From Verrucomicrobiota bacterium (lineage in GTDB: Bacteria; Verrucomicrobiota; Verrucomicrobiia; Verrucomicrobiales; Verrucomicrobiaceae), in the NCBI GenBank assembly GCA_017301975.1, contig JAFLEI010000003.1:62724-126723 (forward strand): 64,000 nt of DNA. Direction: 5' to 3'. The notes under the pieces were generated by a model. That model ran no database searches and was not told the DNA's origin. It saw only the letters and a program-made list of their open reading frames with translations. The position numbers and the translations under genes are program-made. Shown in pieces: positions 42,568 through 50,436 of this stretch. Position 1 is the first letter of the stretch. The number at the start of each line of letters is the position of its first letter.

Positions 42568-42868
42568 CAAGGCCAGCCAAGCTGACTCCCGGAGGAGTCG
42601 TTTAGAGACGCAAGAGCAAGACCTGCAGACAGGTTTGCACCCTCCTACCGAATGTCAACTGAAGCAGCCATCAAATACGCAATATTCCTACGTCGAGGCG
42701 AGGAATGCGGGAATTCATTGCCCATTTTTGACATCACGAAACGGCTTCCCCGGGAGGTGTGCCATAAACACCGAAACATCCGCCGTGAAATACCTGCGGG
42801 TGCGACGCCAGCGATGGAGTGATCTACACACTCCATCCCGTGCGTGGCAGCGGTGTTCGTTCTTTATT
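42568..42868. other. Gene-free stretch with several hairpins, content unresolved
   Basis: No convincing ORF. Hairpins: GACTCC/GGAGTC near 42584-42600; ATTCCT/AGGAAT (about 42683-42706); GGTGT-GCCATAA-ACACC (7-nt loop resembling an anticodon arm, near 42756-42774); and a perfect 9-bp stem GATGGAGTG/CACTCCATC around an ATCTACA loop (about 42812-42837). GGGTGCGACGCC just before the last one resembles the T-arms of the array. I could not fold a full tRNA, linear or permuted, from it. Confidence 0.4.
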
Positions 42869-42991
42869 TGGCAGATCACCTCATCACGAGGCTGATCTGC
42901 CATTCAAGGGCGCGGAGCACGGCAACAAGTGGTGTAACCTTGGGAGAGTGTGTACAGTGGCGAGGCCGTCTCCGTGTCCTTGAATGGCAGA
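42869..42991 (+). promoter_or_regulatory. Mutually exclusive helices just upstream of the first tRNA
   Basis: TGGCAGATCA (42869-42878) pairs with TGATCTGCCA (42893-42902), extended by CCTC/GAGG. The same TCTGCCA continues as a 14-base arm (42896-42909) that pairs perfectly with CCTTGAATGGCAGA (42978-42991). Only one of the two can form, so the RNA has two alternative folds. Confidence 0.5.
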
Positions 42992-43009: not shown

Positions 43010-43144
43010 ACGGCGGTGGCAGACAAGCAATGCACGGGCCTCCAAAACCCGCAGATGTGGGCGCGATATTGCGCTGCGCGCCATGCGAAGAGGCTTCGCG
43101 TGGAAGCAACCGCTCACGCGGTATGGCATTCACCCGCCGTGCCA
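43010..43144 (+). tRNA. tRNA-Trp(CCA) with T-loop insertion
   Basis: Acceptor ACGGCGG/CCGCCGT pairs fully, G73 (correct for Trp) and CCA. Anticodon CCA at 43042-43044 in loop CTCCAAA; the 31-39 pair is C-A. T-stem GTGGG/TTCAC (two G-U pairs), T-loop CGCGATA (43062-43068). A 60-nt insertion (43071-43130, two-base placement ambiguity) separates loop and 3' stem. The D-loop has A18 G19 C20 A21. Confidence 0.85.
43071..43130 (+). other. Structured insertion in the T-arm of tRNA-Trp
   Basis: P1 GCGC/GCGC (43071-43074, 43078-43081); P2 ATGC/GCAT (43083-43086, 43126-43129) enclosing P3 GAAG/CTTC and P4 ACCGC/GCGGT (43109-43113, 43118-43122). Ends in ATT like the other two inserts end in RTT. Confidence 0.65.
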
Positions 43145-43161
43145 ATTTCCAAATCAAGAAC

Positions 43162-43248
43162 GCGGCGGTAGATCGTTAAAGAGGCGACCTGGACTGTAAC
43201 TCCAGTGCTCCCAGGGCCCGTACGGAGTGTTACCATGACGCCGCACCA
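43162..43248 (+). tRNA. tRNA-Tyr(GTA)
   Basis: Acceptor GCGGCGG/ACGCCGC with a G-A mismatch at 7-66, A73, CCA. Anticodon GTA at 43196-43198, stem CTGGA/TCCAG. Variable arm 43206-43220 is long, as expected for Tyr. T-loop AGTGTTA (43226-43232): A54, G55 and T56 replace TTC; T-stem TACGG/CCATG has one mismatch. D-stem only three pairs. Confidence 0.8.
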
Positions 43249-43260
43249 TTTTTTTCAAAC

Positions 43261-43333
43261 TGCAGGGAGAGCCAGTGCTCTGACGGGTCTCATAAGCCTG
43301 TCTTGGTTGGTGCAACTCCATCCCCTGCTTCCA
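43261..43333 (+). tRNA. tRNA with CAT anticodon (elongator Met or Ile2)
   Basis: Anticodon CAT at 43291-43293 in loop CTCATAA. The acceptor has six pairs GCAGGG/CCCTGC with T-T at the end, T73, then CCA. The D-arm is a perfect AGAGC-CAGT-GCTCT hairpin with only four loop bases. T-loop TGCAACT, G55. The anticodon stem lacks the three G-C pairs of an initiator. U8 is replaced by A. Confidence 0.75.
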
Positions 43334-43341
43334 ATTTTCAT

Positions 43342-43416
43342 GGGCTTGTAGTGTACAAGGCAGCACGGCTGGGTGGCACCCAGCAGGAGACGGAGCGTTA
43401 CCGTCCTCGTCCACCA
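43342..43416 (+). tRNA. tRNA-Ala(GGC)
   Basis: Anticodon GGC at 43375-43377, stem GCTGG/CCAGC. The acceptor GGGCTTG/CTCGTCC keeps the G3-U70 alanine identity pair but has mismatches at 5-68 and 6-67. A73 and CCA. T-stem GACGG/CCGTC, T-loop AGCGTTA (43394-43400), G55. The D-loop contains GG, so the A18 change is not clear here. Confidence 0.8.
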
Positions 43417-43423
43417 GTTTCAT

Positions 43424-43500
43424 GGTCCGTTAGCTCAGTTCAGTAGAGCGCCCGCTTGTCGAGCGGAGGGTCGCGGGAGCAAAGCCCGCACGGACCGCCA
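43424..43500 (+). tRNA. tRNA-Asp(GTC)
   Basis: Acceptor GGTCCGT/ACGGACC fully paired, G73, CCA. Anticodon GTC at 43458-43460. D-stem GCTC/GAGC, D-loop AGTTCAGTA with A18 G19. T-stem GCGGG/CCCGC, T-loop AGCAAAG (43478-43484), A54 G55. 27-43 is C-A. Confidence 0.88.
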
Positions 43501-43508
43501 GTTTCCAT

Positions 43509-43583
43509 GGGACCGTAGTGTAGAAGGCTGCACGGCTGTTTTGCAATCAGCAGGCGACGGAGCATTACCGTCCGGCTCCACCA
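43509..43583 (+). tRNA. tRNA-Ala(TGC)
   Basis: Anticodon TGC at 43542-43544. Acceptor GGGACCG/CGGCTCC with G3-U70 retained and an A-C at 4-69; A73, CCA. T-stem GACGG/CCGTC, T-loop AGCATTA (43561-43567), G55. A close relative of the Ala(GGC) gene two positions upstream. Confidence 0.82.
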
Positions 43584-43591
43584 TTTCAGAA

Positions 43592-43665
43592 TCCTCGGTG
43601 ATCTAGCAGTAGGATGCCGCTCTGTTAAAGCGGCTGCGTTGGTGCGACTCCAACCCGAGGAGCCA
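43592..43665 (+). tRNA. tRNA-Asn(GTT)
   Basis: Acceptor TCCTCGG/CCGAGGA, G73, CCA. Anticodon GTT at 43624-43626, stem CCGCT/AGCGG. D-loop AGCAGTA: A14 G15 C16 A18 G19 T20 A21. T-stem GTTGG/CCAAC, T-loop TGCGACT, G55. All stems pair well. Confidence 0.9.
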
Positions 43666-43672
43666 GTTTCAT

Positions 43673-43813
43673 GCCCGCAAGGTGTAATAGAATATGCATA
43701 CGCCGCTTCTAACGGCCGTGGTTCCAGGTGCAAATGGCTGCTTGCAGCCTACGCATCAAGGCTTCGCTCTGATTATTGCGCTATCGCGCATGGCGTTCCT
43801 GGTGTGGGCACCA
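43673..43813 (+). tRNA. tRNA-Arg(TCT) with T-loop insertion
   Basis: Acceptor GCCCGCA/TGTGGGC, A73, CCA. Anticodon TCT at 43708-43710, stem GCCG/CGGC plus C-C at 27-43. T-stem CCAGG (43724-43728) pairs with CCTGG (43798-43802); T-loop TGCAAAT (43729-43735) is followed by a 62-nt insertion 43736-43797 before the 3' stem. U8 is A. Confidence 0.85.
43736..43797 (+). other. Structured insertion in the T-arm of tRNA-Arg(TCT)
   Basis: P1 GGCTG/CAGCC (43736-43740, 43745-43749); P2 ACGC/GCGT (43751-43754, 43793-43796) enclosing P3 ATCA/TGAT (43755-43758, 43770-43773) and P4 TGCGC/GCGCA (43777-43781, 43786-43790). Same layout as in Trp and Ser, different sequence, ends GTT. Confidence 0.7.
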
Positions 43814-43821
43814 TTTCAAAA

Positions 43822-43975
43822 GGAGCACGTCCGGCATAGACGAGGAAACGGTCTCGAAAACCGCTGCGCTCCGCAAAGGCGTCCAGAGTGCGATTGCCTC
43901 TTCCGAGGCTTGGCCAAATGCGCCGAGCGCTCAAATGATGCGCTATCGCGCCAGCCATTCTCTGGTGCTCCGCCA
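43822..43975 (+). tRNA. tRNA-Ser(CGA) with T-loop insertion
   Basis: Acceptor GGAGCAC/GTGCTCC, G73 (correct for Ser), CCA. Anticodon CGA at 43855-43857. A long variable arm (43865-43883) as in class II tRNAs. T-stem CAGAG (43884-43888) pairs with CTCTG (43960-43964); T-loop TGCGATT (43889-43895) is followed by a 64-nt insertion. Five bases separate it from the stop codon of the inverted MFS gene. Confidence 0.83.
43896..43959 (+). other. Structured insertion in the T-arm of tRNA-Ser(CGA)
   Basis: P1 GCCTC/GAGGC (43896-43900, 43905-43909); P2 TGGC/GCCA (43911-43914, 43954-43957) enclosing P3 GCGC/GCGC (43920-43923, 43927-43930) and P4 GCGC/GCGC (43940-43943, 43948-43951) with the same TATC loop as in tRNA-Arg. 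Ends ATT. Confidence 0.7.
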
Positions 43976-43980
43976 TTTCG

Positions 43981-45165
43981 CTAAACCCTGCGGTCAAACC
44001 GAAGCAAGACTTCGTGAGTGATCAGCAGCCCTGCCGCCATGGCAACTGTGGACATTGCCACGGCCTCAAGGCCACGCAATTGAGCCAGCCATCCGCAGGC
44101 GCTGGGCAGGACTGCCGCGCCAACCATCGCCGCGCTGACCTGAAAGCCGATGGCATGGGCTGCACGCCCTTTGCCCAGCCGCTGGGGCGTCCGTGTCATC
44201 AGGCAGGGATAGATGGACGCAAGCCCCAGACCTGTAAGTGCCAGCGCTCCAGCTGAGAAAGGCAGGTTTGCCGCAAACAGCGCGGTGCCTGTCACCGCTG
44301 CCAGCATGCTCAGGCGCAGCAGCAGATCGATGCCCAGCCGCTCAATGATGAAGCCAAACACCACGCGACCCGTGGTGATGCTGGCCCAGTAAATCGTCAC
44401 CCACAGGCCGGCGCTTTCTTTGCTCATGCCGCGTGATTCCGTCATCACCGTGAAGCTCCACTGGCCCACGGTGACCTCGAGCCCGGTGTAGATGAAAAAA
44501 AGCGCGATGTGAGCCCATGTGCCGGTATGTTTTAAGGCATCAAGCATGCCCACGGAGGCCTCTGCTTCCAAAGCTGCATCCGTTGTTTCGGCTGGAGTGT
44601 CCCAAAGCTTTCGAGTGTAAAGAAACAGACCTGTTAGCAGGAGAAGCAAAGAGCCGACCGTTGCATAACCCGCCCGCCACGATCCCAGCGAAACCAGCAT
44701 GGAGGTCATGCTCAGCGGCCCCAGGGTGGCGCCAATGCCGTAGCAGGCATGCAGCCAGTTCATGTGTCGCGGCGAAAAATGATTCGCCACATAATGATTC
44801 AGCCCGGCATCAATGGCACCGGAGCCAAGCCCATGCAGCAGCGCACAAGCTGCAAACAAGCCCCATGCAGGTGCAGCCGAATAGCCCAAGGCACTCGCCG
44901 TCACCAGGAGGCTGCTGCCACCCAGCAGAAGCCCGATGCCAAAAGACTTGAGCAGTTTTCCCGTGAGCAAACCTGAAACGAAATAGCTGGCTCCTGCGCC
45001 GAAAAAGATCCACGCGATGTCACTCTGCTGCCGCCCGAAAAAATCCCGCACCGAAGGCCAGGCCACACCGATGAGCGTGTCCGGCAGCCCAAGGCTGATG
45101 AAGCCCAGATAGGCTGTCACTAGCAGCAGGCGGCGGGTAAAAGATGGAGTGTTGGAGGCCTGCAT
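43981..45165 (-). CDS. MFS transporter inside the tRNA array
   Basis: A 394-residue major facilitator with 12 predicted helices. SWRAGYATVGSLLLL and GLTGLGLASIYPCLMTRTPQRLGKG-like segments fit MFS_1/FucP-type carriers; an early PDTLIGVAWPSVRDFFG segment between helices 1 and 2 is typical. The substrate is unknown. The gene is antisense to the flanking tRNAs: its stop lies 5 bases from tRNA-Ser(CGA) and its start 90 bases from tRNA-Ile. The frame and hydrophobicity are intact. It may have been inserted into a once continuous array. Confidence 0.85.
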   Translation of the reverse strand: MQASNTPSFTRRLLLVTAYLGFISLGLPDTLIGVAWPSVRDFFGRQQSDIAWIFFGAGASYFVSGLLTGKLLKSFGIGLLLGGSSLLVTASALGYSAAPAWGLFAACALLHGLGSGAIDAGLNHYVANHFSPRHMNWLHACYGIGATLGPLSMTSMLVSLGSWRAGYATVGSLLLLLTGLFLYTRKLWDTPAETTDAALEAEASVGMLDALKHTGTWAHIALFFIYTGLEVTVGQWSFTVMTESRGMSKESAGLWVTIYWASITTGRVVFGFIIERLGIDLLLRLSMLAAVTGTALFAANLPFSAGALALTGLGLASIYPCLMTRTPQRLGKGRAAHAIGFQVSAAMVGAAVLPSACGWLAQLRGLEAVAMSTVAMAAGLLITHEVLLRFDRRV

Positions 45166-45255
45166 TTTTGAGCACGGTAGTCTGGTGCAGAAGCTTCGTT
45201 TGTCACTGCCGCCTTGGGTGCAGTTGCACCTGCTTTCGGGCTTCTATTTTTTCAT

Positions 45256-45329
45256 CCCTCTGTAGCTCAACAGCAGAGCAGCCGGTCGATAACCGGCAGA
45301 CCGTGGAGCGTCACCACGCTGAGGGACCT
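45256..45329 (+). tRNA. tRNA-Ile(GAT), C33
   Basis: Anticodon GAT at 45288-45290 in loop TCGATAA, so the invariant U33 is C. Stem GCCGG/CCGGC. Acceptor CCCTCTG/CTGAGGG with T-T at 6-67, A73, then CCT, so CCA is not encoded. D-loop AACAGCA with A18 G19. T-stem CGTGG/CCACG, T-loop AGCGTCA, G55. Confidence 0.8.
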
Positions 45330-45340
45330 TTTTTAATTAA

Positions 45341-45415
45341 CGCTGGATGGCTCAGACAGATGAGCGGCGGATTGAAGATCCGCAGAGGTGGGCGCGCTAC
45401 CCACTCCAGCGGCCA
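45341..45415 (+). tRNA. tRNA-Phe(GAA)
   Basis: Acceptor CGCTGGA/TCCAGCG, CCA, but G73 where Phe normally has A73. Anticodon GAA at 45374-45376, stem GCGGA/TCCGC. D-loop AGACAGAT with A18 G19 and T21. T-stem GTGGG/CCCAC, T-loop CGCGCTA, G55. Confidence 0.86.
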
Positions 45416-45423
45416 TTTCATTT

Positions 45424-45498
45424 GCGGCATTGATGTAACAGCAAGCATGCCTGTCTTCCAAACAGGGCGAGTCGGGGCAGCACCGACATGCCGCACCA
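45424..45498 (+). tRNA. tRNA-Gly(TCC)
   Basis: Acceptor GCGGCAT/ATGCCGC, A73 (bacterial tRNA-Gly usually U73), CCA. Anticodon TCC at 45457-45459, stem CCTGT/ACAGG. D-loop AACAGCAA with A18 G19. T-stem GTCGG/CCGAC, T-loop GGCAGCA: G54 G55. Confidence 0.86.
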
Positions 45499-45507
45499 TT
45501 TCCAGAC

Positions 45508-45583
45508 TCCTCCGCGGCCGACCAAGAAAGGCACCTGTCTTGTAAACAGGTTTATGTGAGCGCGAATCTCACCGGAGGATCCA
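45508..45583 (+). tRNA. tRNA-Thr(TGT)
   Basis: Acceptor TCCTCCG/CGGAGGA, T73, CCA. Anticodon TGT at 45541-45543, stem CCTGT/ACAGG. D-stem GCC/GGC, loop containing AAGAAA. C at position 8. T-stem GTGAG/CTCAC, T-loop CGCGAAT, G55. Confidence 0.86.
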
Positions 45584-45591
45584 TTTCAAAC

Positions 45592-45666
45592 TCCCTTCAT
45601 AGTGTAACAGCAGCATTCTTCGTTGTGAACGAAGCGGTGCCGGGGCAGAACCGGCTGAGGGAACCA
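45592..45666 (+). tRNA. tRNA-His(GTG) without the G-1:C73 pair
   Basis: Anticodon GTG at 45625-45627, stem CTTCG/CGAAG. The acceptor TCCCTTCA/TGAGGGA contains one extra T and ends with A73, CCA; the G-1 to C73 identity pair of bacterial tRNA-His is absent. D-loop with AACAGCA. T-stem GCCGG/CCGGC, T-loop GGCAGAA, G55. Confidence 0.78.
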
Positions 45667-45677
45667 TTTCAAAAATT

Positions 45678-45753
45678 CGTGCGCACGGCGAAGTCGTCGA
45701 GCCAGTGGTTTGCAAGTCCACATTACCCGGTGCGAGTCCGGGGCGCACGTCCA
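45678..45753 (+). tRNA. tRNA-Cys(GCA)
   Basis: Acceptor CGTGCGC/GCGCACG, T73 (the Cys identity base), CCA. Anticodon GCA at 45712-45714, stem GTGG/CCAC plus T-T. D-stem GGC/GCC with an 11-nt loop. A at position 8. T-stem CCCGG/CCGGG, T-loop TGCGAGT, G55. Confidence 0.84.
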
Positions 45754-45763
45754 CTTTTCAAAT

Positions 45764-45839
45764 CGGATACGAGAGAGCCAGCGAACTCGCTTGGTTTGGG
45801 ACCAAGACAGGCCCGGGGCAGCACCGGGGTATCCGACCA
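45764..45839 (+). tRNA. tRNA-Pro(TGG)
   Basis: Acceptor CGGATAC/GTATCCG, A73, CCA. Anticodon TGG at 45797-45799, stem CTTGG/CCAAG. D-stem GAG/CTC, loop with CAGCGA. G at position 8. T-stem CCCGG/CCGGG, T-loop GGCAGCA, G54 G55. Confidence 0.86.
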
Positions 45840-45846
45840 TTTTCAC

Positions 45847-45921
45847 TGGTCTGTAGCTTAACAGTAGAGCGTCGGGCTCATAACCCGCAGGGTGCTGGTG
45901 CAAGTCCAGCCGGACCGACCA
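45847..45921 (+). tRNA. tRNA with CAT anticodon, initiator-like (fMet?)
   Basis: Anticodon CAT at 45879-45881. The anticodon stem ends GGG/CCC, the three G-C pairs of initiator tRNAs, and the 1-72 pair is a weak T-G (TGGTCTG/CGGACCG). A73, CCA. D-loop AACAGTA with A18 G19. T-stem GCTGG/CCAGC, T-loop TGCAAGT, G55. Confidence 0.85.
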
Positions 45922-45929
45922 ATCAAAGT

Positions 45930-46005
45930 AGCCTTGTAGCTCAATCAGCAGAGCATCCGCCTTTGAAGCGGAGAGTTGGTGGTGCAAACCCACCCGAGGC
46001 TGCCA
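45930..46005 (+). tRNA. tRNA-Gln(TTG)
   Basis: Acceptor AGCCTTG/CGAGGCT, G73, CCA. Anticodon TTG at 45963-45965, stem TCCGC/GCGGA. D-stem GCTC/GAGC, D-loop AATCAGCA with A18 G19. T-stem GGTGG/CCACC, T-loop TGCAAAC, G55. Confidence 0.88.
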
Positions 46006-46014
46006 GTTTAAAAT

Positions 46015-46089
46015 GCCCATGTAGTCCAATGCAGAGACAACCGCCTCAGAAGCGGTCCAGTGCAGGTGCGAGTCCTGCCATGGGTACCA
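46015..46089 (+). tRNA. tRNA-Leu(CAG) with short variable loop
   Basis: Anticodon CAG at 46047-46049, stem ACCGC/GCGGT. Acceptor GCCCATG/CATGGGT, A73, CCA. The variable region is only CCAGT, although bacterial tRNA-Leu is class II with a long arm. D-stem GTC/GAC. T-stem GCAGG/CCTGC, T-loop TGCGAGT, G55. Confidence 0.84.
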
Positions 46090-46096
46090 GTTTCAC

Positions 46097-46169
46097 GCCT
46101 GTGTAGTCCAACAGCAGAGACAGCCGCCTCAAAGCCGGCGCAGTGCGAGTGCAACTCTCGCCGCAGGCA
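46097..46169 (+). tRNA. tRNA-Leu(CAA) with short variable loop
   Basis: Anticodon CAA at 46130-46132, stem GCCG/CGGC plus C-C at 31-39. Acceptor GCCTGTG/CGCAGGC, A73; followed by CTTCCA, so CCA is not directly encoded. Variable region five bases. D-loop with AACAGCA. T-stem GCGAG/CTCGC, T-loop TGCAACT, G55. Confidence 0.82.
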
Positions 46170-46179
46170 CTTCCATCAT

Positions 46180-46255
46180 GTCTCCGTAGCTCAGCAGACA
46201 GAGTGGCTGATTACGAATCAGCAGGCCGCAGGTGCGAATCCTGCCTGAGACACCA
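46180..46255 (+). tRNA. tRNA-Arg(ACG)
   Basis: Anticodon ACG at 46213-46215, stem GCTGA/TCAGC; A34 would need deamination to inosine as in normal tRNA-Arg(ICG). Acceptor GTCTCCG/CTGAGAC (C-T at 6-67), A73, CCA. D-loop AGCAGACA with A18 G19. T-stem GCAGG/CCTGC, T-loop TGCGAAT, G55. Confidence 0.87.
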
Positions 46256-46262
46256 TTTCAAT

Positions 46263-46338
46263 GCTCCCGTAGCTCAATCTATAGAGCACCGCGCTTCGAA
46301 CGCGGAGGCTGGAGGCGAAAGTCCTTCCGGGAGCACCA
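46263..46338 (+). tRNA. tRNA-Arg(TCG)
   Basis: Acceptor GCTCCCG/CGGGAGC, A73, CCA. Anticodon TCG at 46296-46298, stem CCGCG/CGCGG. The D-loop AATCTATA differs from the others, and the T-loop CGAAAGT has A56 as well as G55, so both elbow partners changed here. T-stem GGAGG/CCTTC. Confidence 0.86.
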
Positions 46339-46347
46339 ATTCAACAA

Positions 46348-46441
46348 GGAACGCCAACCGGACAAGCGTGCCGGGACTCGGTGCTAACGAGATCGTGCCA
46401 CCATCGCGTGGCATGAGGAGCATGTCCTCGGCGTTCCGCCA
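46348..46441 (+). tRNA. tRNA-Ser(GCT)
   Basis: Acceptor GGAACGC/GCGTTCC, G73, CCA. Anticodon GCT at 46383-46385. Long variable arm with stem TGCCAC/GTGGCA, as expected for Ser. T-stem TGAGG/CCTCG, T-loop AGCATGT (46419-46425), G55. C at position 8. Confidence 0.85.
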
Positions 46442-46452
46442 TTTTTTCAAAT

Positions 46453-46529
46453 GACCCTGTCGTCTAACTGGCCAAGGCACCCGACTTTCTATCGGGATAT
46501 TGCGGGTTCAAATCCCGCCAGGGTTGCCA
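46453..46529 (+). tRNA. tRNA-Glu(TTC), the only canonical tRNA of the array
   Basis: Acceptor GACCCTG/CAGGGTT, G73, CCA. Anticodon TTC at 46487-46489. D-loop AACTGGCCA has normal G18 G19 and the T-loop TTCAAAT (46507-46513) the normal T54 T55 C56. It is a useful internal control showing that the deviations in its neighbours are not a sequencing artefact. Confidence 0.93.
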
Positions 46530-46536
46530 TTTCAAT

Positions 46537-46612
46537 GCTCGCGTAGTCCAACAGCAGAGACACGACGTCGAGAGCGTCGCCAGTGCAGGTGCGACTCCTG
46601 CCGCGAGCACCC
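46537..46612 (+). tRNA. tRNA-Leu(GAG), C33, short variable loop
   Basis: Anticodon GAG at 46570-46572 in loop TCGAGAG, with C33. Stem CGACG/CGTCG. Acceptor GCTCGCG/CGCGAGC, A73, then CCC instead of CCA. Variable region CCAGT. D-loop with AACAGCA. T-stem GCAGG/CCTGC, T-loop TGCGACT, G55. Confidence 0.83.
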
Positions 46613-46617
46613 TTTTT

Positions 46618-46692
46618 CGGTCCAAAGCTTAGACAGCGAAGCAGCCGGCTTTTAACCGGCATAGCAGGGTGCATGTCCCTGTGGACCGACCA
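46618..46692 (+). tRNA. tRNA-Lys(TTT)
   Basis: Acceptor CGGTCCA/TGGACCG, A73, CCA. Anticodon TTT at 46651-46653, stem GCCGG/CCGGC. D-stem GCTT/AAGC, D-loop AGACAGCG with A18 G19 and G21. A at position 8. T-stem CAGGG/CCCTG, T-loop TGCATGT, G55. Last of the array, 36 bases before the RlaP gene. Confidence 0.88.
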
Positions 46693-46728: not shown

Positions 46729-47505
46729 ATGAAAACCAATGATGTGTCCCAACGTGTGCGCGGTGCGCTTACCCGTCTCGAAGCCGAGCAGGACGTCCGT
46801 GTGCTTTATGCCTGCGAAAGCGGCAGCAGGGCCTGGGGTTTTGCCTCGCAGGACAGCGACTACGATGTGCGCTTTCTGTACGTGCACCGTCGTGAATGGT
46901 ATCTCTCCATCGAGAGCCGGCGCGATGTGATCGAGGAACCGCTGACGGACGAGCTCGATGTCAGCGGCTGGGAATTGCGCAAGGCGCTGCGCCTGCTGCG
47001 GAAGAGCAATCCGCCGCTCCTTGAATGGATGAAGTCGCCGGTGGTTTACCACCATGATCCGGACTTCACCCGTGAGTTCGAGGAGCTGGCCGGGATGTTT
47101 TATTCGCCACGCCGCTGCTTTGCGCACTACCTGCACATGGCATCCGGCAACTGGAAGAGCTATCTGGAGGGCAGGGATCAGGTGAGCCTGAAAAAGTACC
47201 TCTATGTCTTCCGGCCGCTGCTGGCCTGCCGCTGGATCGAGCGTTCTCTGGGCCAGGTGCCCATGCTCTTTCAGGAACTGGTGGATGCCGTGCTCGATGA
47301 GCACGAAGTCCGCGCTGCTCTGGAGGCTCTTGTAGCCCGCAAGCGTTCAGGGAATGAGCTCAGCAAATCCGCTCCGGATGAAACGCTCTCGCGCTTCATC
47401 GTCACGGAACTGCAGCGGCTCAAGGCGCTGAACGATCCAGAGGACTCCATGGGTGACCTGGATGAACTGGATCTGTTCTTCCGGCGCTATGCTCTGCGGA
47501 ACTGA
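46729..47505 (+). CDS. RlaP-type nucleotidyltransferase (RNA-ligase-associated pol-beta family)
   Basis: A 258-residue protein matching the pol-beta-fold nucleotidyltransferases formerly COG3541 and later called RlaP, which are encoded next to RNA ligases in RNA-repair loci. The nucleotidyltransferase signature GSRAWGFASQDSDYDVRFLYV (about residues 28-48) contains the GS and the Asp-x-Asp metal ligands; LDVSGWELRKALRLLRKSN and YLHMASGNWKSYLEG follow as in the family. The start is ATG 46729. It lies 36 bases after the last tRNA and before rtcB, with a terminator between, so it could be co-transcribed with the array. Inferred role: end-healing or nucleotide addition on broken RNA. Confidence 0.85.
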   Translation: MKTNDVSQRVRGALTRLEAEQDVRVLYACESGSRAWGFASQDSDYDVRFLYVHRREWYLSIESRRDVIEEPLTDELDVSGWELRKALRLLRKSNPPLLEWMKSPVVYHHDPDFTREFEELAGMFYSPRRCFAHYLHMASGNWKSYLEGRDQVSLKKYLYVFRPLLACRWIERSLGQVPMLFQELVDAVLDEHEVRAALEALVARKRSGNELSKSAPDETLSRFIVTELQRLKALNDPEDSMGDLDELDLFFRRYALRN

Positions 47506-47572: not shown

Positions 47573-47637
47573 GCCAAGAACGAACACCGCTGTCGGGAGG
47601 GCCGTGCCCGCATTTCAGCATCTCATTCTATATCATC

Positions 47638-49056
47638 ATGCAAACTCAAGAACTCACACGCCTTGGCGTAAGCCAGGGCGCAGCGCTCAAGTCTGGCATG
47701 GAATTCATAGCGAATTTCATCTCCCAAGGCGGTGAGTCCGCGCGCCTGGAGGAAGAACTTGCCGCCATTATTTCCAAGCCGGAATCATTCCTCGGCGATC
47801 CTTTGCGGGAGGCCTTCGCTCGTGATCTCTATGCGCCTGCCTACAAGCAGCGCGATCAAATTGCGCCCTGGCATCAATGGGGTGTCGGACTCGATGCGAG
47901 CGCGGTGCAGCAACTGGCGAACGCCTGTGGGCTGCCCGTCGCAGTGGCGGGAGCACTCATGCCGGATGCTCATTCAGGCTACGGCCTGCCGATTGGTGGC
48001 GTGCTGGCGACGGAGGACTGTGTGATTCCTTATGCCGTCGGTGTGGACATCGCGTGCCGCATGCGCCTCACGGTCTATGATCGCAAGGCCAGCACTATCG
48101 CGGGGCAGAAGGACCGGCTGGCGAACATCATCGAAAGCGAAACCCGCTTTGGCATGGGCTGTGAATTCAAGCAGCGCCGCCAGCACGATGTGATGGACGA
48201 GGACTGGAGCGTGTCTCCGATCACACGCCGTCACAAAGACAAGGCGTGGGCGCAGCTTGGCACCAGCGGCTCGGGAAATCATTTTGTGGAGTTTGGTGCG
48301 TTCACCGTGTCGGCAGATGATGCCGTCGCGTTGAAGGAGTCCGGCTTCGACATCAAGCCGGGCGAGTACATCGCGCTGCTCTCCCACAGCGGTTCACGCG
48401 GTGTGGGCGCGCAGGTATGCCAGCACTACAGCCGCATCGCCATGGATCGACGCTATGATTTGCCGAACGAGATGCAGCATCTCGCGTGGCTCACCTTTGA
48501 GGAAGAGGCCGGTCAGGAATACTGGGCGGCCATGAACCTCATGGGCCGCTACGCGGAGGCCAATCATGCGCTCATTCACAGGCATATCGCGAAGAAGGTG
48601 GGTGCTCATGTCATGCTCGACATCGAGAACCATCACAACTTTGCATGGAAGGAAACGCATGTGGTGAACGGCGAATCGCGCGAAGTCATCGTGCACCGCA
48701 AAGGTGCCACACCTGCGGGCGCAGGTGTGCTGGGTGTGATCCCGGGCTCGATGGCGACGCCGGGTTTTGTGGTGCGAGGGAAGGGGAACGCCGAGTCGCT
48801 CCACAGCGCCTCTCACGGCGCAGGTCGGGTGATGAGCCGCAGCCAGGCGCTGCAGAGCTTTGCCTGGGGAAACGTGAAGAGGCAGCTCGCCGCCGCTGGT
48901 GTTGAGCTGCTCAGCGCCGGTCTTGATGAAGTGCCGGGTGTTTACAAGGACATCCACAGCGTCATGGCCGCGCAGACAGATCTTGTCGAAGTGCTCGGCA
49001 AGTTTGAGCCGCGCATCGTCAAGATGTGTCCGGCTGGAGAGAAAGCAGAAGATTGA
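47638..49056 (+). CDS. rtcB: RNA-splicing ligase RtcB
   Basis: A 472-residue GTP- and Mn2+-dependent ligase joining 2',3'-cyclic-phosphate or 3'-phosphate RNA ends to 5'-OH ends. Mn-binding residues are visible: MPDAHSGYGLPIGGV (Asp, His), GVDIACRMR (Cys), GTSGSGNHFVE and LLSHSGSRGVG (His). Guanylate-binding and the guanylylated His lie in HSASHGAGRVMSRSQA; NHHNFAWKE is also typical. All catalytic positions are present. Length is close to the usual 400-480. Start ATG 47638. No archease gene accompanies it. An HNH gene follows after 3 bases, implying one operon. Confidence 0.95.
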   Translation: MQTQELTRLGVSQGAALKSGMEFIANFISQGGESARLEEELAAIISKPESFLGDPLREAFARDLYAPAYKQRDQIAPWHQWGVGLDASAVQQLANACGLPVAVAGALMPDAHSGYGLPIGGVLATEDCVIPYAVGVDIACRMRLTVYDRKASTIAGQKDRLANIIESETRFGMGCEFKQRRQHDVMDEDWSVSPITRRHKDKAWAQLGTSGSGNHFVEFGAFTVSADDAVALKESGFDIKPGEYIALLSHSGSRGVGAQVCQHYSRIAMDRRYDLPNEMQHLAWLTFEEEAGQEYWAAMNLMGRYAEANHALIHRHIAKKVGAHVMLDIENHHNFAWKETHVVNGESREVIVHRKGATPAGAGVLGVIPGSMATPGFVVRGKGNAESLHSASHGAGRVMSRSQALQSFAWGNVKRQLAAAGVELLSAGLDEVPGVYKDIHSVMAAQTDLVEVLGKFEPRIVKMCPAGEKAED

Positions 49057-49059
49057 AAA

Positions 49060-49662
49060 ATGAAGTTCAAGAAAGGTATGAAAGACCTCCTCACTAAATC
49101 CACCGTTCTGGTGCTCAACCGCAACTGGCAGGCCATCGCCGTGAAAACGCCGCTGGAGGCCTTCAGCATGATCGCCACAGGCGCGGCCACAGCGCTCGAC
49201 ATCGAAACGGATGGAAACATCCGCCCGGTGACATGGAAGGAATGGCTGGGCCTTCCAGTACGTGAAGGCGACAACACCATCGGCACCGTGAACGGTCCGG
49301 TGCGCGTGCCTTCCGTGCTGGTGCTTGCCCGTTATGACAGAGTGCCGAAGAAACGGCCCAAGTTCGGCGTGCGCGGCATCTGGGAGCGCGATGGCGGCCT
49401 GTGCCAGTACACCGGTCGCAAACTGCGCCCTCACGAAGGGAACATCGACCACGTGGTGCCGCTGTCCCGTGGCGGGCCCACCTCCTGGGAAAACTGTGTT
49501 CTTGCCGACAAGCGCGTCAACAGTCGGAAAGGCAGCAAATTGCCTGAAGAGGCCGGCCTGAAGCTGCTGCGAAGCCCCGTCCAACCACGCGAACTGCCCG
49601 TGACCCTCCTGATTCACAACACGCATCAGGTGCGGGATTGGGAGATGTTTCTGGCCAAATGA
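49060..49662 (+). CDS. HNH endonuclease-like protein 1
   Basis: A 200-residue protein. The N-terminal half (STVLVLNRNWQAIAVKTPLE) is shared with a family of PVC and other HNH proteins; the HNH module is at about 125-170 with DGGLCQYTGRKL (one metal Cys), HEGNIDHVVPLSRGG containing the catalytic DH, SWENCVLADKRVN with N and C, the last Cys of the zinc pair. It follows rtcB by three bases, so it should be translated from the same message. Whether it cuts DNA or RNA is unknown; in this setting an RNA substrate is a possibility. An ATG at 49078 could be an alternative start. Confidence 0.82.
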   Translation: MKFKKGMKDLLTKSTVLVLNRNWQAIAVKTPLEAFSMIATGAATALDIETDGNIRPVTWKEWLGLPVREGDNTIGTVNGPVRVPSVLVLARYDRVPKKRPKFGVRGIWERDGGLCQYTGRKLRPHEGNIDHVVPLSRGGPTSWENCVLADKRVNSRKGSKLPEEAGLKLLRSPVQPRELPVTLLIHNTHQVRDWEMFLAK

Positions 49663-49830: not shown

Positions 49831-50436
49831 ATGAATGAAACGTTGACCAAAACGACCGTACTGGTGCTGAATCGGCACTGGCAGGCCATCGACTCTAAAA
49901 CGCCCGTGGAGTCCTTTAGCATGATGGCGGCGGGCAATGCGACCGCGCTGGACATCCAAGCTGCGGGGGACATGCGACCTGTGACCTGGGAGGACTGGCT
50001 GAAGCTGGAGGTTCGCGAAGGCGACAACAGCATTGGCACCGTGCACGGCCCTGTTCGAGTTCCCTCAGTGCTGGTGCTGGCCCGCTTTGACAAGGTGCCC
50101 AAACGACGGCCCAAATTTTGCGCGAAGGCGATCTGGGAGCGTGATGGTGGGATGTGCCAGTACACGGGCCGCAAGCTGCGACCGCATGAGGGCAACATCG
50201 ACCACATCGTTCCGGTCTCCCGTGGTGGCGCGAGCAACTGGGAAAACTGCGTGCTGGCAGACCGCCGGGTGAACAGCCGCAAGGGGAACAAACTGCCGGA
50301 GGAGGCGGGGCTGAAGCTCCTGCGGCGTCCCGTAGTGCCACGCGAGATCCCGGTGACGCATCTCATCAAAAACCACCACCGCGTGCGCGACTGGGAGATG
50401 TTTCTCGCGGGCGGAACGGGAGTGTTTGAAGTTTGA
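49831..50436 (+). CDS. HNH endonuclease-like protein 2, paralogue of the preceding one
   Basis: A 201-residue protein clearly duplicated from the gene at 49060: shared segments include TTVLVLNRHWQAIDSKTP, GPVRVPSVLVLARFDKVPK, CQYTGRKLRPHEGNIDH and RVNSRKGNKLPEEAGLKLL. HNH residues are kept (DHIVPVSRGG, WENCVLADRR). A 168-base gap with hairpins (49719-49744 and 49774-49802) separates the two copies, so the second may have its own promoter. Retention of both copies suggests diverged targets. A 12-bp hairpin terminator follows at 50449-50487. Confidence 0.82.
   Translation: MNETLTKTTVLVLNRHWQAIDSKTPVESFSMMAAGNATALDIQAAGDMRPVTWEDWLKLEVREGDNSIGTVHGPVRVPSVLVLARFDKVPKRRPKFCAKAIWERDGGMCQYTGRKLRPHEGNIDHIVPVSRGGASNWENCVLADRRVNSRKGNKLPEEAGLKLLRRPVVPREIPVTHLIKNHHRVRDWEMFLAGGTGVFEV

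What the first reader, a model, noticed from the sequence alone, without database searches (positions are those of the whole stretch)
43010..46692. 25 of 26 arrayed tRNAs carry G55 in place of the invariant U55
The T-loops read NGCRNNN (TGCGACT, AGCATTA, CGCGCTA, GGCAGCA and so on), never TTCRANY, except in tRNA-Glu. U55 is near-universal and is the pseudouridine made by TruB; it pairs with G18 to build the tRNA elbow. At the same time most D-loops show AG where G18 G19 is expected, i.e. a possible A18-G55 replacement of G18-U55 with G19-C56 retained in most. The one canonical tRNA has both GG and TTC, so the two changes covary. Stems and many identity elements are intact, arguing against decay. 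Staphylococcal cell-wall tRNA-Gly carry G-U-G-C for G-T-Psi-C and avoid EF-Tu; by analogy these tRNAs may work outside ribosomal translation.
Basis: partly seen in the sequence, partly recalled or inferred. Interest (0 to 1): 0.96.

Follow-up and report, generated by a model that had tools for sequence, protein, structure and literature searches.

The report
Phage-style tRNA set with rewired elbows
Besides its normal tRNA genes, this bacterium carries a second, almost complete set of tRNAs in which a near-universal contact at the bend of the molecule has been swapped for a different one; the same swap fills tRNA sets on some uncultured virus contigs, so the set likely keeps protein synthesis going when ordinary tRNAs are attacked.

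Summary
Confirmed: 25 of 26 tRNAs at 43010-46692 have G55; only Glu keeps TTC. The same genome has separate housekeeping tRNAs, 42 of 42 distinct ones with U55 and GG in the D-loop, and TruB. In 21 related loci 309 of 331 array tRNAs have G55. D- and T-loops change together (GG in 20 of 21 U55 tRNAs, 16 of 309 G55 tRNAs), 56 changes with 19, and stems show compensatory changes: a rebuilt elbow, not decay. The set covers 19 amino acids and adjoins RlaP, RtcB and two HNH genes. The same elbow fills tRNA sets on three large uncultured virus contigs (33 of 34, 32 of 35, 29 of 34). Controls, six isolated phages and six plasmid arrays, are nearly all canonical (130 of 131, 143 of 149). Best reading: a reserve translation set of the known long-array kind, likely phage-derived, predicted to escape enzymes that read the usual elbow. 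Work outside translation is weakened: marks of staphylococcal cell-wall tRNA-Gly are not enriched. Function is untested.

The parts
43010..43144 (+). tRNA-Trp(CCA), G55, T-loop carries an insert of about 60 nt
   Evidence: fit; uninserted orthologue in L068
43162..43248 (+). tRNA-Tyr(GTA), long variable arm, T-loop AGTGTTA (G55, U56)
   Evidence: read by hand against L069 orthologue
43261..43333 (+). tRNA-Met(CAT) no. 1, no Watson-Crick 1-72 pair, T-loop TGCAACT
   Evidence: read by hand; orthologue L069:4579
43342..43416 (+). tRNA-Ala(GGC), G3-U70 present, T-loop AGCGTTA
43424..43500 (+). tRNA-Asp(GTC), AGCAAAG
43509..43583 (+). tRNA-Ala(TGC), G3-U70 present, AGCATTA
43592..43665 (+). tRNA-Asn(GTT), TGCGACT
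43673..43813 (+). tRNA-Arg(TCT), G55, T-loop insert of about 60 nt
43822..43975 (+). tRNA-Ser(CGA), G55, T-loop insert of about 60 nt
   Evidence: uninserted TGCGATT in L062
45256..45329 (+). tRNA-Ile(GAT), C33, AGCGTCA
45341..45415 (+). tRNA-Phe(GAA), CGCGCTA
45424..45498 (+). tRNA-Gly(TCC), GGCAGCA
45508..45583 (+). tRNA-Thr(TGT), CGCGAAT
45593..45666 (+). tRNA-His(GTG), GGCAGAA
45678..45753 (+). tRNA-Cys(GCA), TGCGAGT
45764..45839 (+). tRNA-Pro(TGG), GGCAGCA
45847..45921 (+). tRNA-Met(CAT) no. 2, GGG/CCC in the anticodon stem, TGCAAGT
45930..46005 (+). tRNA-Gln(TTG), TGCAAAC
46015..46089 (+). tRNA-Leu(CAG), short variable loop, TGCGAGT
46097..46172 (+). tRNA-Leu(CAA), short variable loop, TGCAACT
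46180..46255 (+). tRNA-Arg(ACG), TGCGAAT
46263..46338 (+). tRNA-Arg(TCG), CGAAAGT (G55, A56) facing U19
46348..46441 (+). tRNA-Ser(GCT), long variable arm, AGCATGT
   Evidence: T-arm re-read by hand
46453..46529 (+). tRNA-Glu(TTC), the only canonical elbow: GG with TTCAAAT
46537..46612 (+). tRNA-Leu(GAG), C33, short variable loop, TGCGACT
46618..46692 (+). tRNA-Lys(TTT), TGCATGT
42751..42870 (+). conserved leader RNA element upstream of the array (function unknown, no Rfam match)
46729..47505 (+). RlaP, RNA-repair nucleotidyltransferase
   Evidence: Pfam PF10127, E 5.5e-91
47638..49056 (+). RtcB RNA ligase
   Evidence: Pfam PF01139, E 3.8e-86
49060..49662 (+). HNH protein of a family that also lies beside plasmid tRNA arrays
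49831..50436 (+). second, related HNH protein

Best explanation
The array is a second, near-complete tRNA set of the long-tRNA-array kind whose D-loop/T-loop contact has been switched from G18-U55 to A18-G55, and it likely serves as a phage-derived reserve for translation when ordinary tRNAs are cut or withheld, the changed elbow being predicted to hide it from enzymes that read the standard elbow. Shown from sequence: the joint 18/55 switch, the kept 19-56 pair, intact stems, 19 amino acids covered, conservation in relatives, RNA-repair neighbours, and the same elbow in virus tRNA sets. Inferred: that the tRNAs are charged and used by ribosomes; that expression is induced by damage or translation stress, as for the Anabaena array; that the elbow was selected to escape a tRNA-targeting enzyme (a nuclease, or a modification enzyme such as TruB); that RtcB and RlaP repair the cut tRNA pool meanwhile. 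G19-C56, the outer face that ribosome and RNase P contact, is kept, so the set should still pass through the translation machinery, while the inner G18-Psi55 contact is replaced.
For: Housekeeping control, same genome: 42 of 42 distinct tRNAs have U55 and GG. Arrays of 21 related loci: of 331 seven-base T-loops 309 G55, 21 U55, 1 A55; GG in the D-loop in 20 of 21 U55 tRNAs and 16 of 309 G55 tRNAs (Fisher p 2.7e-21, sequences related). Within one isoacceptor the loops switch together: Arg-TCT is GG/TTC in L069 and L099, AG/TGC elsewhere; Leu-CAG is GG/TTC in L094 and L096. Of 18 tRNAs with 56 not C, 17 have a Watson-Crick partner at 19 and one has G-U, 18/19 assigned by eye. 161 of 537 stem-pair columns show compensatory change. 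Neighbours RlaP, RtcB, HNH; relatives add TROVE and an RNA ligase, and GOLLD in 2 of 7 loci scanned. Virus contigs: 32 of 35, 33 of 34, 29 of 34 G55, with portal and head protease on one and tail-fibre genes on another; two short contigs join a G55 array to terminase and RtcB, one of them with RlaP. Anabaena's silent 26-tRNA operon is induced by translation stress and shares a repressor with rtcB; an HNH gene rises with them (PMC10272220 passages). G18-Psi55 is a one-hydrogen-bond pair and the G19-C56 face is the one recognised (PMC4810234 passages).
Against: No expression, charging or cleavage data. No enzyme reading the G18-U55 contact is identified here; cleavage by the tRNA nuclease AriB does not need Psi55 (PMC12409363 passages). 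Most phage and plasmid array tRNAs checked keep UC at 55-56: 130 of 131 in the stretches fetched from six isolated phages and 143 of 149 in six plasmid arrays, so being a spare or phage set does not require G55. Repair genes are not obligatory: RtcB in 3 of 13 and RlaP in 1 of 13 virus records, none on the three large ones; L094-L096 arrays come from genomes with only distant RlaP relatives. On the 275 kb virus contig none of five proteins tested matched a phage family. Val is missing here and three tRNAs are interrupted. The virus contigs were found with a Leu pattern that itself asks for A18-G19, so their share is not a frequency.
Confidence: 0.5

Rival explanations
1. The elbow was changed so that the set works without modification: A18-G55 would hold the elbow without Psi55, letting a burst of emergency tRNAs fold before TruB and TrmA act. 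Escape from nucleases plays no part.
For: U55 is lost in nearly all members although TruB is present in the genome; T54-A58 is kept in 95 of 202 array tRNAs and in all 94 G55 tRNAs of three virus sets.
Against: Stretches of six isolated phages with many tRNAs keep UC in 130 of 131; two cyanobacterial plasmid arrays, of the kind that is stress-induced in Anabaena, keep it in 34 of 36 (L078, L079). Anabaena's own array was not seen (one search failed).
Confidence: 0.2
2. The array tRNAs are decoys: structurally tRNA-like RNAs that soak up tRNA-cutting toxins or effectors, without taking part in translation.
For: The tRNA-like part of YrlA RNA in a repair operon has been proposed as a competitive inhibitor of the nuclease (PMC7790460 passages); RNA-repair neighbours.
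Against: At least one tRNA for 19 amino acids, Ala G3-U70 kept, CCA encoded in most members here (not in the large virus sets), a Met tRNA with initiator-like marks; decoys would not need this.
Confidence: 0.12
3. Non-ribosomal use: aminoacyl donors for cell wall, lipids or peptides that avoid EF-Tu.
For: G55 and loss of GG resemble staphylococcal cell-wall tRNA-Gly (GTGC recalled, not from a call).
Against: Weak EF-Tu pairs not enriched and 18-19 is AG, not UU or CU; 19 amino acids is more than I would expect such pathways to use; no aminoacyl-transferase family among the ten neighbouring ORFs scanned.
Confidence: 0.07
4. Relaxed selection: a dying, silent array drifting away from consensus.
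For: Three of 26 tRNAs are interrupted, Val is lost, Tyr and Met-1 have a T-stem mismatch.
Against: The same isoacceptor-specific loops recur over many genomes; compensatory stem changes in 161 of 537 columns; coupled 18/55 and 19/56.
Confidence: 0.05

Closest known systems
Long tRNA arrays (L-arrays, tRNA array units) of cyanobacteria and mycobacteria, e.g. the Anabaena PCC 7120 trn operon
   Same: 20 or more packed tRNAs redundant to the housekeeping set, mobile, HNH gene alongside, GOLLD RNA in some (passages); Anabaena's is stress-induced and shares a repressor with rtcB (passages)
   Different: T-loops of the six plasmid arrays checked are nearly all canonical: 143 of 149 UC at 55-56, 3 GC; here 25 of 26 G55. 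RlaP and RtcB sit next to the array
Phage-encoded tRNAs that evade tRNA-cutting defences (van den Berg 2023; retron and PARIS work)
   Same: redundant tRNA sets on phages, linked to tRNA damage (listing, passages)
   Different: the escape described there is through anticodon-loop changes; here the constant change is in the elbow. C33 occurs in 37 of 309
Rtc RNA-repair operons with RtcB, Ro60 and Y RNA (Salmonella rsr-yrlBA-rtcBA)
   Same: RtcB, and TROVE in relatives; proposed to act on cut tRNAs (passages)
   Different: carries a full tRNA array and RlaP; no RtcA among the ten neighbouring ORFs scanned
Staphylococcal non-proteinogenic tRNA-Gly
   Same: altered 18-19 and, as recalled, G55
   Different: strong T-stem pairs kept, A18-G19 rather than UU or CU, a whole set rather than one amino acid

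Membership tests
Long tRNA array / tRNA array unit | 20 or more tRNA genes at high density | tested here: met
   26 in 3.7 kb, one gene inserted; threshold from PMC5966550 passages
Long tRNA array / tRNA array unit | supernumerary to a housekeeping set | tested here: met
   42 distinct housekeeping tRNAs for 19 amino acids in this 96%-complete draft; Ile(GAT) and Ala(TGC) were not found, perhaps in an unassembled rRNA operon
Long tRNA array / tRNA array unit | HNH gene of the array-linked family nearby | tested here: met
   two HNH genes; same family beside arrays in 6 of 8 plasmid loci opened, of 65 matching records
Long tRNA array / tRNA array unit | carried by mobile elements | tested here: inconclusive
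   met for relatives: arrays with terminase or portal genes; for this window no phage family among the ten ORFs scanned with Pfam
Long tRNA array / tRNA array unit | silent normally, induced by translation stress | not testable with these tools
   no RNA data
Staphylococcal non-proteinogenic tRNA-Gly type | weak EF-Tu pairs A49-U65 and A51-U63 | tested here: not met
   4 and 41 of 309, against 6 and 12 of 42 housekeeping
Staphylococcal non-proteinogenic tRNA-Gly type | UU or CU at 18-19 | tested here: not met
   mostly A18-G19
Phage anti-defence tRNAs | insensitive to a host tRNA-targeting enzyme | not testable with these tools
   needs cleavage assays
Phage anti-defence tRNAs | anticodon-loop changes at nuclease sites | tested here: inconclusive
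   U33 to C33 in 37 of 309, mainly Ile-GAT and Leu-GAG; no nuclease known here
Rtc RNA-repair operon | RtcB ligase in the cluster | tested here: met
Rtc RNA-repair operon | RtcA cyclase or RtcR regulator alongside | tested here: not met
   absent from the ten neighbouring ORFs scanned; not searched genome-wide

The most novel reading that the evidence does not exclude
A18-G55 defines a parallel tRNA dialect: phages and the bacterial arrays derived from them have rebuilt the elbow of whole tRNA sets, keeping the 19-56 face for ribosome and RNase P but dropping the G18-Psi55 contact, so that a near-complete translation-ready set is invisible to TruB and to immune enzymes that recognise the standard elbow, and is paired in some lineages with RlaP and RtcB to repair the ordinary pool.
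Probability: 0.3. Interest if true: 0.92.

Novelty: new variant of a known kind. Interest (0 to 1): 0.82.

Why it matters
U55 is treated as a near-constant of tRNA. A natural, conserved, near-complete set that has dropped it, with the partner base changed in step, gives a ready experiment on what G18-Psi55 is for, on which enzymes read the elbow, and on why phages and some bacteria carry whole tRNA sets. If the escape reading holds, it adds an elbow-level way of evading tRNA-targeting immunity to the known anticodon-loop way, and points to tRNA bodies that do not depend on Psi55.

Tried and rejected
Misplaced loops: rejected by covariance-model alignments. Organism-wide G55: rejected. Decay: rejected for the family. 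Recent duplication from housekeeping genes: for the 19 array tRNAs compared, best identity to any housekeeping tRNA is 64-76%, and to one of the same anticodon, where found, 53-72%. Similarity searches with array DNA in phages and plasmids gave matches to single tRNAs or short runs, none covering 80% of the query. GOLLD or a Y RNA in the window's leader: no Rfam hit above its cut-off. T-loop inserts as introns: considered because RtcB is adjacent; not favoured because related inserts occur in both orientations, which points to a small mobile DNA element; not excluded. Defence-system models: only weak HNH matches. One sigma-70-like match upstream, against 0.4 expected, is no evidence of a promoter. 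Papers: the NAR 2021 L-array paper and Burroughs and Aravind 2016 are not held, so I cannot say whether they mention G55; what I say of the NAR paper is recall or comes from PMC10272220. No title or abstract start listed reports G55 arrays, and PMC7912444 has no occurrence of G55 or A18. In all papers I saw listings or passages, none whole.


Full report
What was claimed and what is there. The finding says that 25 of 26 arrayed tRNAs carry G55. I re-read the region and fitted cloverleaves. There are 26 tRNAs: Trp, Tyr, Met, Ala-GGC, Asp, Ala-TGC, Asn, Arg-TCT, Ser-CGA, then an MFS gene on the other strand, then Ile, Phe, Gly, Thr, His, Cys, Pro, Met, Gln, Leu-CAG, Leu-CAA, Arg-ACG, Arg-TCG, Ser-GCT, Glu, Leu-GAG, Lys. 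That is 19 amino acids; Val is missing here, but a Val-TAC follows Lys in five of the ten related arrays. G55 holds in 25; Glu is TTCAAAT. Tyr, Met-1 and the Ser-GCT T-arm were read by hand. ARAGORN finds 9 of the 26 and Rfam 11 with its fast filters or 14 with laxer ones above its cut-off, as expected of loops that are off consensus.

The housekeeping control. The same genome (6.9 Mb, 95 contigs, 96% complete) gave 55 Rfam tRNA matches, 11 of them in the array. Around the other 44, ARAGORN finds 42 distinct tRNAs: 42 of 42 with UC at 55-56 and 42 of 42 with GG in the D-loop. They cover 19 amino acids; Ile(GAT) and Ala(TGC) were not found, perhaps because an rRNA operon is unassembled. One TruB gene is present. 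The other refuting outcome is excluded too. Array tRNAs are only distantly related to these (best identity 64-76% for the 19 compared).

Conservation. A scan with RlaP, the gene just downstream, found 15 named loci. Ten (L061-L069 and L073, Prosthecobacter-like and other Verrucomicrobiaceae assemblies) have the array upstream; five do not (L070, L071 Chthoniobacter flavus, L072, L074, L075). The T-loops are isoacceptor-specific and recur: Phe CGCGCTA, Ile AGCGTCA, Pro GGCAGCA, Lys TGCATGT, Arg-TCG CGAAAGT. With ten further loci, three of which hold only one or two fitted tRNAs, the tally is 337 fitted tRNAs in 21 loci; six had long T-loops and were dropped; of 331 the base at 55 is G in 309, U in 21, A in 1. 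The other four of the fourteen regions showed no array (L103-L105) or repeated one already counted (L097). L101 comes from a one-contig genome of another genus, so assembly error is not the cause.

Coupling of the two loops. GG occurs in the D-loop of 20 of 21 U55 tRNAs and of 16 of 309 G55 tRNAs; several of the 16 read AGG, i.e. A18 G19 G20. Fisher p is 2.7e-21 but the sequences are related. The switch occurs inside isoacceptors: Arg-TCT is GG/TTC in L069 and L099, AG/TGC elsewhere; Leu-CAG is GG/TTC in L094 and L096 only; Glu is GG/TTC in most, but G55 in L063, L066, L073, L098, L099, L101 and L102. These could be gene replacements rather than point changes. Position 56 is not C in 18 tRNAs; by eye, 19 is then the Watson-Crick partner in 17 (U19-A56 in 13 Arg-TCG and one Gly; A19-U56 in one Arg-TCG and two Pro-TGG) and G-U in one. 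I chose 18/19 with the partner in view, so this count leans towards pairing. The three GC loops among 149 tRNAs of six plasmid arrays also sit with D-loops that read AG, not GG. In 288 sequences of 26 groups, 161 of 537 stem-pair columns show compensatory change and 5829 of 5948 cells pair; the pairing percentage is inflated because the fit selects for stems. The elbow is rebuilt and maintained.

Neighbourhood. RlaP, RtcB and two HNH proteins follow the array. In relatives a TROVE (Ro60) protein (L065) and an RNA_ligase protein (L064, L069) lie in or beside the array, a TROVE protein also follows it in L101, and GOLLD RNA lies inside it in L069 and L064, 2 of 7 loci scanned. A leader element upstream has a nearly invariant core in ten loci and is found in 6 of 288 genomes sampled from the phylum, this one included. 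The HNH family lies beside tRNA arrays in 6 of the 8 plasmid loci that I opened, out of 65 records matching; HNH and GOLLD in mycobacterial arrays are known (passages of PMC5966550 and PMC6582537). The 39 fitted array Leu tRNAs all have variable loops of 5-6, while the five housekeeping Leu are 83-86 nt long.

Virus contigs. One pattern from the array's Leu D-arm matched 13 IMG/VR records. Because the pattern asks for A18-G19, the records are biased towards this elbow. ARAGORN on the fuller arrays gives G55 in 32 of 35 (275 kb contig), 33 of 34 (131 kb), 29 of 34 (160 kb) and 10 of 40 (137 kb). D-loops without GG: 27 of 32, 27 of 33 and 21 of 29 of the G55 tRNAs in the first three; all eight of their U55 tRNAs have GG. 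Three short contigs have 27 of 28, 27 of 28 (near-identical arrays) and 29 of 31; the other six are mixed or canonical. Portal and head-protease genes are on the 160 kb contig and tail-fibre genes on the 131 kb one; none of five proteins tested from the 275 kb one matched. A 26 kb contig joins the array to terminase, portal and RtcB, and a 27.5 kb one joins array, terminase, RtcB and RlaP. In the two large sets with U55 Met tRNAs, four of the five have the GGG/CCC stem of initiators; in the Prosthecobacter arrays the Met with that stem has G55, so this is not a rule. Stretches of six isolated phages: 130 of 131 tRNAs UC, one UU.

How it most likely works. Known L-arrays are spare, mobile tRNA sets; Anabaena's is silent until translation is stressed and shares a repressor with rtcB, an HNH gene rising with them (PMC10272220 passages). 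Phage tRNA sets are thought to replace tRNAs cut by host defences, and array units have been called putative antidefence systems (PMC10264068, PMC12803027 passages). The elbow's outer pair G19-C56 is what the ribosome, RNase P and others contact, whereas G18-Psi55 is an inner, single-hydrogen-bond pair (PMC4810234 passages). A set that keeps the first and changes the second would still be processed and translated but could escape enzymes tuned to the standard elbow. That last step is inference; no such enzyme is identified here, and AriB cleavage does not depend on Psi55 (PMC12409363 passages). Independence from modification is the main rival for why G55 was chosen.

Non-ribosomal use is weakened: the EF-Tu-weakening marks of staphylococcal tRNA-Gly (review passage PMC4052509) are not enriched (A49-U65 4 of 309 against 6 of 42; A51-U63 41 of 309 against 12 of 42). 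GTGC in those tRNAs is recalled.

Verdict. Real and conserved. I found no report of it in the searches named under Tried and rejected, with the caveat that the main L-array paper was not available. A new variant of the long tRNA array, with a broader and bolder reading open. Checking the draft against the calls changed some counts (143, not 144, of 149 plasmid-array tRNAs with UC; 19, not 20, housekeeping amino acids; ten, not eleven, further loci); none of these required a change of odds.

Noticed in passing
window 43010-43144, 43673-43813, 43822-43975; L061, L062, L063, L064, L065, L066, L098, L100: Structured inserts of about 60-67 nt interrupt T-loops of array tRNAs, present in some genomes and absent in others at the same tRNA; related in sequence and found in both orientations. 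A small mobile element with a taste for T-loops, or removable inserts.
   Followed up: partly
window 42751-42870; L069 4078-4228; L073 4436-4580: A leader RNA with a nearly invariant core (GGAGGTGTGCCnnAAACACCGAAACATCCGCCG...TGGCAGCGGTGTTCGTTC) upstream of the arrays, by eye with two mutually exclusive pairings and without an Rfam match; a near copy of its 3' part lies inverted at 47579-47594 between rlaP and rtcB. Possibly a switch sensing tRNA or repair state.
   Followed up: partly
window 42898-42988: A long hairpin just before the first tRNA, with stem bases changed on both sides in L069; by eye the shape recalls a Y RNA.
   Followed up: partly
L069 8291-8719; L064 5054-5477: GOLLD RNA inside Verrucomicrobial tRNA arrays, before tRNA-Glu or before Leu-GAG.
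   Followed up: no
array Leu tRNAs, window 46015-46172 and 46537-46612: Array Leu tRNAs are class I (variable loop of 5-6), unlike housekeeping Leu; Leu tRNAs of similar short length also occur in plasmid arrays of other phyla.
   Followed up: partly
L152 4441-5349, 7495-8391: A TIR-domain protein lies between RtcB and RlaP, and an unknown 298 aa protein between RlaP and the array, on a phage contig; the unknown protein's start resembles one inside the L073 array.
   Followed up: no
window 45256-45329, 46537-46612: C33 instead of the near-universal U33 in Ile-GAT and Leu-GAG, recurring in relatives.
   Followed up: partly
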